This document shows positions 31,092 through 35,267 of a stretch of 64,000 bases of DNA, one piece after another (the first letter of the stretch is position 1; each line of letters begins with the position of its first letter). The notes beneath the pieces are model-generated. The model was not told the DNA's origin. It did not search any database and saw only the letters and a program-made list of their open reading frames with translations. The stretch is from positions 694,820 through 758,819 of the forward strand of contig NZ_NTGB01000001.1 of assembly GCF_003072505.1 (NCBI RefSeq). Reading direction: 5' to 3'. This DNA comes from Polynucleobacter rarus (GTDB lineage Bacteria; Pseudomonadota; Gammaproteobacteria; Burkholderiales; Burkholderiaceae). The position numbers were made by a program, and so were the translations under genes.

Positions 31092-32039
31092 TTAGTTAAA
31101 AAAATGCTTTGCATATCGAGAGTTGATATCAGTCAGTCTTAACATCGTTAAGAAGTCAGCTGTATTGAAATCTGGGTCCCATGCTGGTTCACCACAAATC
31201 TTTGCCCCGATTCTGAGATAACCTTTAATTAGAGGAGGTGGTTCAACATCCAAATCTGAGTTTAACTTTTCGAGGGGTAGTGGTAGCTTTGGAAAAGTTC
31301 GATATTCAACAGGACTTAAATTCTTTTCACTAAAAATTCTATTTAAGCTAGCTGCATAGTGGCCACCATCACCCATTGGTACGCTTGCGCAGCCAAGCAT
31401 AATTTCATAACCGTGTTGCTTCATATAGGAGCCCAAACCAGCCCACAAAGCCATAATGACACCACCAGAGCGATAGTTTGCATGAACACATGATCTTCCA
31501 ACTTCAACTGCGTTCGGATAAAGGTGCTCAAGTCTAGATAAATCAAATTCTGATTCAGAATATAGGCGTCCAATTAATTTTGCTTGATCGGGCGGCAAAA
31601 TTCGATAAGTGCCCACAACCTGCAGGGTTTTCGTGTCACGCACAATAAGGTGGTCGCAATAGGCATCGAATTCGTCAACATCTAAACCTTCTTCTTTATT
31701 CGGAAGGTTAGCACCCATTTCTTCAGCAAAAACATGATAACGAAGACGTTGTGCTTCTTTAATTTCTTCTAAGTCCCTTGCAATATATACCTGGATAGGG
31801 CTTGATTTATTGGCTTGGCCATTCTCTGAAATATTGGGTAACTCGCTGACTGTTTTCTTTAGTTCCTTAATTTTGGCATTTTTCTTTTTAGACTTATGTT
31901 TTTTTAAAAGAAATAAATTAGGAAACTTATTAAACTTCTGCATTCTTGAGAGTTTTTTTGAGAGTTTACCGGCGATTTTAGTCGTCAAACCATCACCGAT
32001 GGAGTTTAAAGACTGTAGTGGGTTAGGTAATTCTTTCAT
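31092..32039 (-). CDS. GNAT-type N-acyltransferase, OlsB-like (lyso-ornithine lipid synthase candidate)
   Basis: OlsB enzymes attach a 3-hydroxyacyl chain from ACP to the alpha-amino group of ornithine, the first step to phosphorus-free ornithine lipids. The catalytic region has the signature RLRYHVFAEEMGA followed by DEFDAYCDHLIV and VEVGRSCVHANYR, as in the Acetyltransf_5/hemolysin-like group. I start at ATG 32039 (MKELPN, 315 residues); a TTG 63 bp upstream would overlap dgkA and lacks a ribosome site. A basic Lys-rich stretch precedes the domain and may bind membrane. It is the last gene of a plcP-agt-dgkA-olsB run. Homologues are sometimes annotated only as GNAT, so ornithine specificity is inferred. 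Confidence 0.8.
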   Translation of the reverse strand: MKELPNPLQSLNSIGDGLTTKIAGKLSKKLSRMQKFNKFPNLFLLKKHKSKKKNAKIKELKKTVSELPNISENGQANKSSPIQVYIARDLEEIKEAQRLRYHVFAEEMGANLPNKEEGLDVDEFDAYCDHLIVRDTKTLQVVGTYRILPPDQAKLIGRLYSESEFDLSRLEHLYPNAVEVGRSCVHANYRSGGVIMALWAGLGSYMKQHGYEIMLGCASVPMGDGGHYAASLNRIFSEKNLSPVEYRTFPKLPLPLEKLNSDLDVEPPPLIKGYLRIGAKICGEPAWDPDFNTADFLTMLRLTDINSRYAKHFFN

Positions 32040-32074
32040 TTTATGAGTAATTTTCCAGATATTGGTTAATTGTA

Positions 32075-32539
32075 TTAAGAAAAAGTTGCATGAAGATGAC
32101 AAATTAAAGTCGAATCGTTAATAAATGTCACTTTTAAATTCTTAATGACCGGAATCAGTATATAAATCCACGTAAATATACATAGAAGCAGTGCTAGCAT
32201 CACCGCAGCAGAGCCATAATCTTTTGCTCTTTTTGATAAACCATGATTATCAAAGGAAATTCTATCAATTGCAGCTTCAACACTAGAGTTTAGCAACTCG
32301 ACAATGAGAACCAAAATTACCACCATCAAAAGTAGTATATGCTCAACTCGACTAACGGGTAAAAATAAAGAAATAGGGAGTAACACCGCCGTTAAAGTTA
32401 ACTCTTGTCGAAACGCACTTTCTTCCTTGATAGCAAATTGAAGTCCGTGCCAGGAGTTGATGCTAGCCTTGATTGCTCTGGTGACACCTTTGTTGCCTTT
32501 GTGAGGGTTTTGATCGTACGAATAATGATCGTCGTTCAT
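32075..32539 (-). CDS. dgkA: Diacylglycerol kinase (prokaryotic DgkA type)
   Basis: A small integral-membrane kinase that phosphorylates diacylglycerol to phosphatidate. The 154-residue protein has the motifs AIKEESAFRQE, ELLNSSVEAAIDR and SKRAKDYGSAAV, which contain the catalytic Glu residues, and three membrane helices. E. coli DgkA has 122 residues; here a hydrophilic N-terminus and about 25 extra C-terminal residues are added. Its ATG overlaps the stop of the glycosyltransferase gene (ATGA), so the two are coupled. Next to a phospholipase-C-like gene it would recycle the diacylglycerol. Confidence 0.92.
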   Translation of the reverse strand: MNDDHYSYDQNPHKGNKGVTRAIKASINSWHGLQFAIKEESAFRQELTLTAVLLPISLFLPVSRVEHILLLMVVILVLIVELLNSSVEAAIDRISFDNHGLSKRAKDYGSAAVMLALLLCIFTWIYILIPVIKNLKVTFINDSTLICHLHATFS

Positions 32540-33570
32540 ATGGAAATATCAGTACTTGCTTCAACTAATCCAGGAGGAACAGGTTGAAGATGCTTTACGA
32601 ATTGTTCAGTAGCTGCCCGCCAAGAAAAGCCCTCAGCATATTGACGAGTACTTGCCCGCGAGATTTTCAGAGCAGCCAAGCAAGCATCTTCTAAATTTTC
32701 ACTTAGGGCACCTGATTCACTATCCCCAATAACATCGATAGGGCCGGTAACTGGATACGCGGCGACAGGAAGTCCACAAGCCATCGCCTCTAAAAGAACA
32801 AGTCCGAAGGTATCAGTTTTACTTGGAAATACAAACACATCAGCGCTGGAATAATACTGTGGCAATTCTGATTGGTCTTTAGCACCCAAAAATTGAACTA
32901 GCGGATATTTTTCTTTTAAATACGAAAGTGATGGACCATCGCCAATCACTACTTTAGAGCCTGGTAAATCGAGTTGTAAAAAGGCTTCGATATTTTTTTC
33001 AACTGCAACCCTACCAACATTTAAAAATATTGGCTTAGCGCTGGTTAATGCGTCGCTATGCTTGACTTCGAACCTCGATAAATCAACGCCTCGAGTCCAC
33101 AGAACCACATTTTTGAAGCCATAACTTTCTAAGTCTTTTTTTACCGTGATAGTAGGAGCCATTACAGCTAGTGACTTTTGATGAAACCACTTTAAAAATC
33201 GATAAGTCAGTTTTAATGGGATACCCGTTCTGGCCTTCACATATTCCGGAAATCGAGTATGGTATGCGGTTGAAAATGGCAAATGATTTTTTACAGCATA
33301 AGCTCTGGCGGCTAACCCTAAAGGGCCCTCGGTTGAGATATGCAATGCATCCGGCATAAAAGACTTAATCCTGCGCGAAATTTTTTTGCCTGGAAGTATG
33401 GATAAAGAAATGTCTGGGTAGGTCGGGCAGGGGATTGTCTTGAATTCTAATGGAGATAGGATATCTACTACATGTCCCATTAATTCAAGTTCATGTCTTG
33501 TTTGTTTTAATGTTCGGACAACACCATTAATTTGAGGCTCCCAAGCATCAGTGATGATCAAAATCTTCAT
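32536..33570 (-). CDS. GT4-family glycosyltransferase, likely diacylglycerol glycosyltransferase (Agt-like)
   Basis: A GT-B fold glycosyltransferase. The N-terminal half begins KILIITDAWEPQINGVVRTL and the C-terminal half carries the donor-site E-x7-E motif in SKTDTFGLVLLEAMACG. I start at ATG 33570 with AGGATC 8 bp upstream (344 residues); the longer form from 33591 overlaps plcP. Similar genes paired with PlcP in Alphaproteobacteria and marine bacteria (agt) make glycosylated diacylglycerols under phosphate limitation. The pairing here is the basis for that role; PIM-type mannosyltransferase activity is an alternative. Confidence 0.8.
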   Translation of the reverse strand: MKILIITDAWEPQINGVVRTLKQTRHELELMGHVVDILSPLEFKTIPCPTYPDISLSILPGKKISRRIKSFMPDALHISTEGPLGLAARAYAVKNHLPFSTAYHTRFPEYVKARTGIPLKLTYRFLKWFHQKSLAVMAPTITVKKDLESYGFKNVVLWTRGVDLSRFEVKHSDALTSAKPIFLNVGRVAVEKNIEAFLQLDLPGSKVVIGDGPSLSYLKEKYPLVQFLGAKDQSELPQYYSSADVFVFPSKTDTFGLVLLEAMACGLPVAAYPVTGPIDVIGDSESGALSENLEDACLAALKISRASTRQYAEGFSWRAATEQFVKHLQPVPPGLVEASTDISI

Positions 33571-33580
33571 TGCATTGATC

Positions 33581-34459: not shown

Positions 34460-34489
34460 GATGACATTAAGCCATAGTTAAGTTACTGT

Positions 34490-34510
34490 AATATGCACAT
34501 TTTAAGACAG
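34490..34510 (-). promoter_or_regulatory. Pho-box-like site upstream of plcP
   Basis: Read on the minus strand, CTGTCTTAAAA is followed after exactly 11 bp by the half-site TGTGCATATT. The first half matches the PhoB consensus heptamer at 6 of 7 positions and the second keeps CAT-AT, as in the pstS site. A possible -10 (TAACTA) follows about 10 bp later, in front of plcP. The region is only 85 bp and divergent, so it may serve the plsC-like gene too. Confidence 0.5.
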
Positions 34511-34544
34511 AATTGTTACATTTAATAATTGAATAGAGAATTTT

Positions 34545-35267
34545 ATGTTGGTTATCAGCTATTTACGCGTTATTGCACATATTTTTAGGGGATTTTTCAT
34601 TGTTGTTTTTTTGTTTCCGAGAAAAGATACTCAACAACAGAATTTAGCCTTGCAAAATTGGAGTTATGGATTATTAAAGGTATTCAACATCGAGTTACAA
34701 CTTGAAGGTGAGATCCCCAAAGATTTGCAATCGCACCTAGTGGTGAGTAATCATATTTCATGGTTGGATATTCATGTGATCAACGCCTTATTTCCTATGC
34801 GATTTGTCGCAAAGAAAGAGGTTGCTTCTTGGCCAGTATTTGGGTGGTTTGCAAAAAAATTAAATACTCTTTTTATTGATCGACAAAAAAGTGGTCACTC
34901 TAGGGATGTTTCTGATCAAATGACATCAGCTTTAAAAGCGGGAGATAGGATTTGTATTTTTCCAGAAGGAACTTCTTCAGACGGCTTATCGGTTCTTAAA
35001 TTTAAGCCTAATTTATTTCAATCTGTCATTGATGCTCAAAGTATCTGCTTACCAACAGCTATTACTTATATCCAGCCCAAGACTGGGGAGGTAAGTATTG
35101 CAACAGCTTTTATTGGTGATATGGGACTGTTGGAATCAATGAACAATACTTTAAAGAACGCACCGTTAATTGTTCGTGTTCGTATTGGCGAACCGATTAA
35201 AGATGAAGTGAATCGGAAAGTCTTGTCAGAGTTGGCTTGGGAGCAAGTTGTGAAATTAAGAAATTAA
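34545..35267 (+). CDS. 1-acylglycerol-3-phosphate-type O-acyltransferase (PlsC/OlsA-like)
   Basis: A 240-residue LPLAT-family acyltransferase. The N-terminal ~25 residues are a membrane helix, then the catalytic NHISWLD (HX4D), the substrate-binding FIDRQKSG and the FPEGTSS block follow in the correct order. It may acylate lysophosphatidate (PlsC) or lyso-ornithine lipid (OlsA). Its divergent position beside a cluster containing an OlsB-like gene favours OlsA, but sequence alone does not separate the two. tRNA-Pro follows 44 bp after the stop. Confidence 0.85.
   Translation: MLVISYLRVIAHIFRGFFIVVFLFPRKDTQQQNLALQNWSYGLLKVFNIELQLEGEIPKDLQSHLVVSNHISWLDIHVINALFPMRFVAKKEVASWPVFGWFAKKLNTLFIDRQKSGHSRDVSDQMTSALKAGDRICIFPEGTSSDGLSVLKFKPNLFQSVIDAQSICLPTAITYIQPKTGEVSIATAFIGDMGLLESMNNTLKNAPLIVRVRIGEPIKDEVNRKVLSELAWEQVVKLRN

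What the first reader, a model, noticed from the sequence alone, without database searches (positions are those of the whole stretch)
31092..35267. PhoB-linked lipid remodelling cluster beside the pst-pho-ppk-ppx block
Seen: a tight run of plcP-like, GT4 glycosyltransferase, dgkA and olsB-like genes, with an olsA/plsC-like gene divergent, immediately after the phosphate operon. Known: PlcP with a glycosyltransferase replaces phospholipids by glycolipids, and OlsB/OlsA make phosphorus-free ornithine lipids under phosphate limitation in other bacteria. Inferred: this organism encodes both routes plus DgkA, which can return the diacylglycerol to phosphatidate, as one unit. I do not know of a described unit combining all five.
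Basis: partly seen in the sequence, partly recalled or inferred. Interest (0 to 1): 0.75.

Follow-up and report, generated by a model that had tools for sequence, protein, structure and literature searches.

The report
Phosphate-saving membrane lipid gene block
Beside its phosphate-uptake genes this Polynucleobacter genome carries a five-gene block, found in the same order in most genomes of its genus that were examined, that is predicted to replace phosphorus-containing membrane lipids with sugar lipids and ornithine lipids when phosphate runs short; the enzyme types are already known, and the grouping is the new part.

Summary
All five genes lie where stated, beside pst-phoUBR-ppk-ppx. The phosphoesterase is not LpxH: the genome has a separate LpxH over the curated cut-off, and the two groups split with 100/100 support. 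The glycosyltransferase has every residue reported essential in the diacylglycerol glycosyltransferase GTcp. The divergent acyltransferase fits OlsA best and stands apart from the genome's other PlsC-like proteins. Of 80 regions fetched from same-genus genomes, 72 show olsA-like|plcP-GT4-dgkA-olsB (some copies broken), 6 lack dgkA there, 1 is cut by a contig end, 1 is a remnant. In 36 other family genomes holding plcP and olsB, none shows them close, though two other Burkholderiales MAGs do, in another order. A Pho half-site array lies in the shared promoter gap across the genus; the window's copy is degenerate. Function is inferred; no lipid was measured. [quoted passage not shown] A new arrangement of a known kind.

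The parts
33581..34459 (-). plcP-like metallophosphoesterase (292 aa), predicted intracellular phospholipase C
   Evidence: Metallophos over cut-off; LpxH model 38.8 bits against a cut-off of 190.35; separate LpxH in the genome; 100/100 split from LpxH; metal-binding motifs SDxHLG, GDxxDxW, GNHDE, HGDxFD, GHIH
32536..33570 (-). GT4 glycosyltransferase (344 aa from ATG 33570; the open frame begins at 33591), predicted diacylglycerol glycosyltransferase
   Evidence: GT4 families over cut-off; all reported catalytic and substrate residues of GTcp present at matching spacing
32075..32539 (-). dgkA, diacylglycerol kinase (154 aa), the only one found in the genome
   Evidence: PF01219 111.4 bits against 22.3; 1 match in G000
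31092..32039 (-). olsB-like ornithine N-acyltransferase (315 aa from ATG 32039; the open frame begins at 32102)
   Evidence: PF13444 130.1 bits; best NCBIfam models are two OlsB equivalogs at 174 and 170 bits, below their cut-offs of 320 and 350; 1 match in G000; start
34545..35267 (+). olsA-like O-acyltransferase (240 aa), divergent from plcP
   Evidence: PF01553; best NCBIfam model OlsA 138.4 bits (cut-off 300), above its PlsC-subfamily score of 91.1; tree apart from other PlsC-like proteins 95/96
34482..34520 (-). predicted array of four PhoB half-sites 11 bp apart, in the gap between plcP and the olsA-like gene
   Evidence: second-best of 127,924 positions with a matrix trained without the window's clade, 0 of 1000 shuffles as good; but only 13 of 18 consensus matches and under the 99th control percentile with the pstS-trained matrix
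20469..27059 (+). context: pstS-pstC-pstA-pstB-phoU-phoB-phoR
   Evidence: translations, conserved order in relatives
27056..30831 (.). context: ppk (27056-29155, -) and ppx (29263-30831, +)

Best explanation
The block is a conserved Polynucleobacter lipid gene cluster that is predicted to be switched on by PhoB in phosphate shortage and would then replace phospholipids by phosphorus-free lipids along two routes. Inferred steps: (1) falling phosphate activates PhoR-PhoB, which likely binds the half-site array between plcP and the olsA-like gene. (2) PlcP would cut phospholipids to diacylglycerol and a phospho-headgroup from which phosphate is recovered. (3) The GT4 enzyme would put a sugar (glucose or glucuronate, by analogy with Agt and GTcp) on the diacylglycerol. 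(4) OlsB and the OlsA-like enzyme would build ornithine lipid. (5) DgkA would return surplus diacylglycerol to phosphatidate. Shown here: gene content, order, conservation, residue signatures, the half-site array and shared loss. Not shown: any enzyme activity, lipid or expression.
For: Order kept in 72 of 80 fetched same-genus regions, 78 of 80 without regard to dgkA. PlcP distinct from LpxH. GT4 residues of a proven DAG glycosyltransferase all present. GT4 directly follows plcP in 78 of the 80 nearest named loci, and the two are one open frame in L083, with three further proteins among the 120 listed that hold all motifs of both. Pho sites: 74 of 81 upstream regions score at least 14 of 18, against 17 of 1620 shuffles; 53 of 81 exceed the 99th percentile of 1600 controls; array at a fixed place in 70 of 73. 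Shared loss of plcP, olsB, dgkA, olsA-like gene and ppx in G043, G058, G096, G129, which keep LpxH, another PlsC-like gene and PhoB.
Against: No activity, lipid or expression data. OlsB and OlsA fall below the curated NCBIfam cut-offs. The window's own Pho site is weak by the plain consensus (13 of 18) and by the pstS matrix, and in the close relative L096 the array matrix prefers another place. dgkA is missing from the block in 6 of 80 regions, and G101 has plcP and olsB with no dgkA found, at 86% completeness. Shared loss could be one linked deletion.
Confidence: 0.82

Rival explanations
1. The phosphoesterase, GT4 and DgkA serve envelope housekeeping (an LpxH-like hydrolase, sugar transfer to a saccharide acceptor, DgkA recycling diacylglycerol from periplasmic glucan synthesis), and only the acyltransferases concern phosphate.
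For: The nearest solved structures of the phosphoesterase are LpxH. GT4 enzymes use many acceptors, and its matches to solved structures do not name one. Whether periplasmic glucan genes exist in this genome was not tested.
Against: Separate LpxH over cut-off and 100/100 split. GT4 carries the Asp, Arg and Trp that mark the DAG-using GTcp group. Pho sites precede plcP across the genus. Complete genomes live without these genes but keep LpxH.
Confidence: 0.08
2. Two unrelated modules that happen to be neighbours: plcP-GT4-dgkA is the old family core, and olsB moved next to it with its own promoter and without shared control.
For: In the family sample outside the genus, 12 of 36 genomes with both genes have them on one contig and the nearest pairs are 67, 71 and 74 kb apart. 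In the dgkA-less units the GT4-olsB gap scores rather high with the Pho matrix (6 gaps, median 11.2, 1 above the 99th control percentile of 12.2), so olsB there may have its own Pho site.
Against: Gaps of 10 and 35 bp and a 4-bp overlap in the window; the join is kept in 78 of 80 fetched regions; in the dgkA-olsB gap only 1 of 28 exceeds the 99th control percentile. A separate Pho site for olsB would still be shared control.
Confidence: 0.08
3. The divergent gene is a second PlsC (lysophosphatidate acyltransferase), not OlsA, and ornithine lipid is completed by another enzyme.
For: It also matches the PlsC subfamily model (91.1 bits, under its cut-off of 102.95) and misses the OlsA cut-off (138.4 against 300).
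Against: OlsA is its best model; the other PlsC-like protein scores lower on OlsA (46.2) than on PlsC (77.6). The two form separate groups (95/96). The olsA-like gene is absent from the same four genomes that lack olsB, which keep the other PlsC-like gene.
Confidence: 0.2

Closest known systems
plcP-agt operons (marine bacteria, PMC4796936; Methylosinus trichosporium OB3b, PMC9239053; Pseudomonas aeruginosa PA3219-PA3218, PMC8528852; passages read)
   Same: plcP directly followed by a GT4 gene, Pho box upstream, PlcP separate from LpxH
   Different: Here dgkA and olsB follow in the same run and an olsA-like gene is divergent, all beside ppx-ppk-pho-pst; in OB3b olsA and olsB have locus tags away from plcP-agt in the passage read
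PHO-dependent PlcP, DagK, OlsA and OlsB of Pseudomonas putida BIRD-1 (PMC5082522, passages)
   Same: The same four enzyme types rise together in low phosphate; PlcP and OlsAB were absent in the phoBR mutant, and the discussion calls all four PHO-dependent
   Different: By the locus tags shown, plcP (1390) and olsA-olsB (0974-0975) are not one locus there; no DAG glycosyltransferase is named in the passages read
olsB with predicted Pho boxes in Burkholderia sensu lato (PMC7814305, passages)
   Same: OlsB homologues of the same family under predicted PhoB control
   Different: In my family sample olsB is not near plcP
GTcp of Pelagibacter HTCC7211 (PMC8231724, passages)
   Same: GRVAxEKN and FPSxTDTFG motifs, His/Asp dyad with Asp in place of Glu, DAG-site Arg and Trp
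   Different: Sugar and acceptor of the Polynucleobacter enzyme are untested

Membership tests
PlcP | Calcineurin-like metallophosphoesterase with intact metal-binding motifs | tested here: met
   Pfam over cut-off; motifs intact in the window and in most of 79 genus copies
PlcP | Distinct from LpxH, with LpxH encoded elsewhere | tested here: met
PlcP | Groups with characterised PlcP proteins in a tree | not tested
PlcP | Releases diacylglycerol from phospholipid | not testable with these tools
   needs an assay
DAG-using GT4 (Agt/GTcp) | UDP-sugar motifs, His/Asp dyad, DAG-site Arg and Trp | tested here: met
   all present in the window; in the genus 74-78 of 78 copies per motif
DAG-using GT4 (Agt/GTcp) | Makes glycosyl-diacylglycerol | not testable with these tools
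   needs an assay
DgkA | PF01219 over cut-off | tested here: met
   the motif ExxNxxxE, recalled as catalytic, is present
OlsB | PF13444 and OlsB as best NCBIfam model over its cut-off | tested here: inconclusive
   PF13444 met; OlsB models are the best matches but 174 and 170 bits are below 320 and 350
OlsA | OlsA as best NCBIfam model over its cut-off | tested here: inconclusive
   best match at 138.4 bits, cut-off 300
PhoB regulon | Pho box upstream | tested here: met
   across the genus; weak in the window itself by two of three measures
PhoB regulon | Expression depends on phoB and low phosphate | not testable with these tools
   needs expression data or a phoB deletion

The most novel reading that the evidence does not exclude
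The block is a self-contained lipid exchange circuit with a built-in return valve: DgkA in Polynucleobacter is not a general housekeeping enzyme but is dedicated to the diacylglycerol that PlcP makes, so the cell switches diacylglycerol between glycolipid and phosphatidate while OlsBA fills the rest of the membrane, all from one locus under one Pho array.
Probability: 0.4. Interest if true: 0.55.

Novelty: new variant of a known kind. Interest (0 to 1): 0.42.

Why it matters
Polynucleobacter is an abundant, widely distributed freshwater lineage (stated in PMC13101498, passage). If the reading is right, its phosphorus-saving membrane programme sits largely in one 4-kb locus, which gives a gene marker for phosphate stress in lakes and a compact system for asking how cells balance glycolipid, ornithine lipid and phospholipid. 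It would also tie DgkA, usually regarded as a recycler in housekeeping (recalled), to lipid remodelling.

Tried and rejected
LpxH identity of the phosphoesterase: rejected. Housekeeping PlsC identity of the divergent gene: disfavoured. In one search the second tree held no PlsC rows because my search pattern was too strict; one search repeats it. In one search the script found 0 training sites (wrong spacing in my pattern), so its scores mean nothing; one search replaces it. One search prints rank 3 for the window's site because the score was rounded; its sorted list shows the site second. In one search one residue pattern was off by one; one search gives 77 of 78. The sigma-70 and terminator scan of the block found about as many as shuffles (11 against 13.6 and 5 against 3.8). 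Matches of the GT4 to solved structures did not narrow its acceptor. Fusions: of the 120 hits listed and the query, 4 (query included) hold all seven motifs and 27 hold both halves but not all motifs; the script then stopped with an error while printing linkers. I read four of them: P0007 looks clean; P0015, P0004 and P0009 look frameshifted, so I do not count the 27.

Literature: no paper with Polynucleobacter and plcP; one with Polynucleobacter and ornithine lipid, seen only in the listing; one with Polynucleobacter, phosphate and lipid remodelling, whose passages say nothing on this locus. Other searches. Papers were seen as listings, or as passages for PMC4796936, PMC5082522, PMC9239053, PMC8528852, PMC7814305, PMC8231724, PMC13101498 and PMC3972451; none was read whole. 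Absence from print is claimed only for these searches of open-licence papers. The B. cenocepacia phosphorus-stress proteomics paper is not held.

Selection and misses: one search gave 114 other same-genus genomes with a match; four of these have only a weak LpxH-like match (G043, G058, G091, G094), leaving 110, of which I fetched 80, leaving out mostly fragmentary assemblies and including broken copies. Of the 80 nearest named loci, 9 end less than 3.5 kb after plcP, so a missing olsB there says nothing; that count also looked only downstream of plcP.
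Full report
What is there. The five genes are present as described. On the minus strand run plcP (33581-34459), GT4 (likely start ATG 33570, end 32536), dgkA (32539-32075) and olsB (likely start ATG 32039, end 31092); the junctions are a 10-bp gap, a 4-bp overlap and a 35-bp gap. The olsA-like gene (34545-35267) reads the other way, 85 bp from plcP. Beyond olsB lie ppx, ppk and the phoR-phoB-phoU-pst genes (20469-30831).

Organism. The window lies in G000, 3.16 Mb in two contigs. 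Same-genus genomes share contig lengths with records titled Polynucleobacter: L104 with IMCC 30228, L107 with MWH-Berg-3C6. The nearest named OlsB is from P. kasalickyi, 88% identical. I call the genus Polynucleobacter on that basis.

Identity of the parts. The phosphoesterase scores 38.8 bits on the LpxH model, cut-off 190.35; another protein of the genome scores 229.5. In a tree of 29 PlcP-like and 9 LpxH rows the groups separate with 100/100 support. The residue in GN(H/R)D is His in 78 of 79 genus PlcP copies (one is a remnant) and Arg in the four LpxH checked. The GT4 carries the two UDP-sugar motifs of GTcp and all the residues reported there as needed for activity (Gly16, Gly82, Gly85, His104, Thr162, Arg163, Arg190, Lys195, Asp256, Thr257, Phe258, Gly259, Glu264, Trp320), each within three positions of the same number (PMC8231724, passages). 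DgkA is over its cut-off and is the only one found in the genome. OlsB and OlsA are the best models for the two acyltransferases, but below narrow curated cut-offs. The olsA-like protein groups apart from the other PlsC-like proteins (95/96).

Conservation in the genus. In a sample of 121 genomes, own included, the plcP and olsB searches each ring in 115; for plcP this includes four genomes with only a weak LpxH-like match. Of 80 fetched regions, 72 show olsA-like|plcP-GT4-dgkA-olsB, 6 the same without dgkA, 1 (L098) is cut after dgkA by the contig end and 1 (L174) is a decayed remnant; the 72 include broken copies such as L171, L172, L173 and L175. In the six without dgkA the gene exists elsewhere in 6 of 6 genomes; in L113 and L123 it stands beside phoB.

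Where the join arose. In a family sample of 60 genomes, 4 of them of the genus, 36 genomes outside the genus hold both plcP and olsB. In 12 of these both lie on one contig, and the nearest pairs are 67, 71 and 74 kb apart (G145, G181, G165); in the other 24 they lie on different contigs, and contig ends were not checked, so nearness is not strictly excluded there. Among the 80 nearest named loci GT4 follows plcP in 78, dgkA follows within 2.5 kb in 60 and olsB within 3.5 kb downstream in 14: 9 titled Polynucleobacter and 5 MAGs titled otherwise, one of them (L013) the same contig as a same-genus genome by length. Two further Burkholderiales MAGs have olsB upstream of plcP, about 4.1 kb (L083) and 1.5 kb (L089) away, with pst genes nearby. 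So plcP-GT4-dgkA looks like an old family core, the downstream olsB looks like an addition of the Polynucleobacter line, and grouping near pst may have arisen more than once.

Regulation. Upstream of plcP, 74 of 81 sequences reach 14 of 18 matches to the Pho consensus, against 17 of 1620 shuffles. A matrix trained on 24 distinct pstS-promoter sites puts 53 of 81 above the 99th percentile of 1600 control placements, and its best site lies on the plcP strand in 77 of 81. The motif is a run of four half-sites 11 bp apart, at 30 or 33 bp from the matched plcP start in 70 of 73 genomes. A matrix trained on these, without the window and seven relatives, puts the window's site (34482-34520) second among 127,924 positions of the window, with 0 of 1000 shuffles as good. 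Against this, the window's site matches the plain consensus at only 13 of 18, is below the 99th percentile with the pstS matrix (9.0 against 12.2), and in L096 the array matrix prefers another place.

Shared loss. G043, G058, G096 and G129, all over 90% complete, show no plcP, olsB, dgkA, olsA-like gene or ppx, but keep LpxH, another PlsC-like gene and a PhoB orthologue of 63-76% identity. GT4 was not searched there. In 96 good-quality genomes DgkA is missing in five: these four and G017, whose plcP is a remnant. Parts of the block are broken by stops or frameshifts in G017, G119, G122, G133, G124 and G023. Exceptions: G119 and G023 keep an open dgkA beside a broken plcP, and G101 (86% complete) has plcP and olsB but no dgkA found. 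Linked deletion may explain the pattern, so it supports but does not prove a functional tie.

Mechanism, inferred. PhoB would induce the block; PlcP would free diacylglycerol and, indirectly, phosphate from phospholipid; GT4 would glycosylate the diacylglycerol; OlsB and the OlsA-like enzyme would make ornithine lipid; DgkA would return surplus diacylglycerol to phosphatidate. One open frame of 635 codons joins PlcP and GT4 in L083, and three of the 120 listed homologues hold all motifs of both, which fits two enzymes that act in sequence.

Comparison. plcP-agt operons with Pho boxes are published for marine bacteria, a methanotroph and P. aeruginosa. Low-phosphate induction of PlcP, DagK, OlsA and OlsB is published for P. 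putida. Pho boxes before olsB are predicted in Burkholderia. I did not find this five-gene locus, or lipid remodelling work on Polynucleobacter, in the searches named in Tried and rejected. I rate it a new variant of a known kind.

Noticed in passing
L083:9965-11872 (+); proteins P0007, P0008, P0013: PlcP and GT4 in one open frame (635 codons) in a Burkholderiales MAG, and three further proteins that hold all motifs of both. Other candidates look frameshifted.
   Followed up: partly
between ppx and phoR in many Polynucleobacter genomes, e.g. L103:7260-14130: A variable stretch replaces ppk there; in L103 it encodes an alkaline phosphatase, two MgtC-family proteins, a DUF2252 protein and a low-molecular-weight phosphatase.
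   Followed up: partly
G043, G058, G096, G129 (whole genomes): These genomes show neither the lipid genes searched nor ppx, yet keep a PhoB orthologue. What stands at the old place was not looked at.
   Followed up: partly
window 35312-35528 and about 36105-36131: tRNA-Pro and tRNA-Arg genes end at 35528, and a near copy of the tRNA-Arg 3' end recurs at about 36105-36131; this may mark a past integration.
   Followed up: no
window 36555-37549 (-): An aldo/keto reductase appears as two pieces in two open frames, so it looks broken.
   Followed up: no
window 37906-42789 (+): TonB-dependent receptor, DUF347 protein, TonB and ExbB-like genes in a row, followed by an integrase-core (rve) ORF at 44037-45218.
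   Followed up: no
window about 15438-15455 (-): A strong Pho-box-like site (17.7 with the pstS matrix), inside the start of an ftsJ-like gene and about 100 bp upstream of a CRS1_YhbY-domain gene; may be chance.
   Followed up: no
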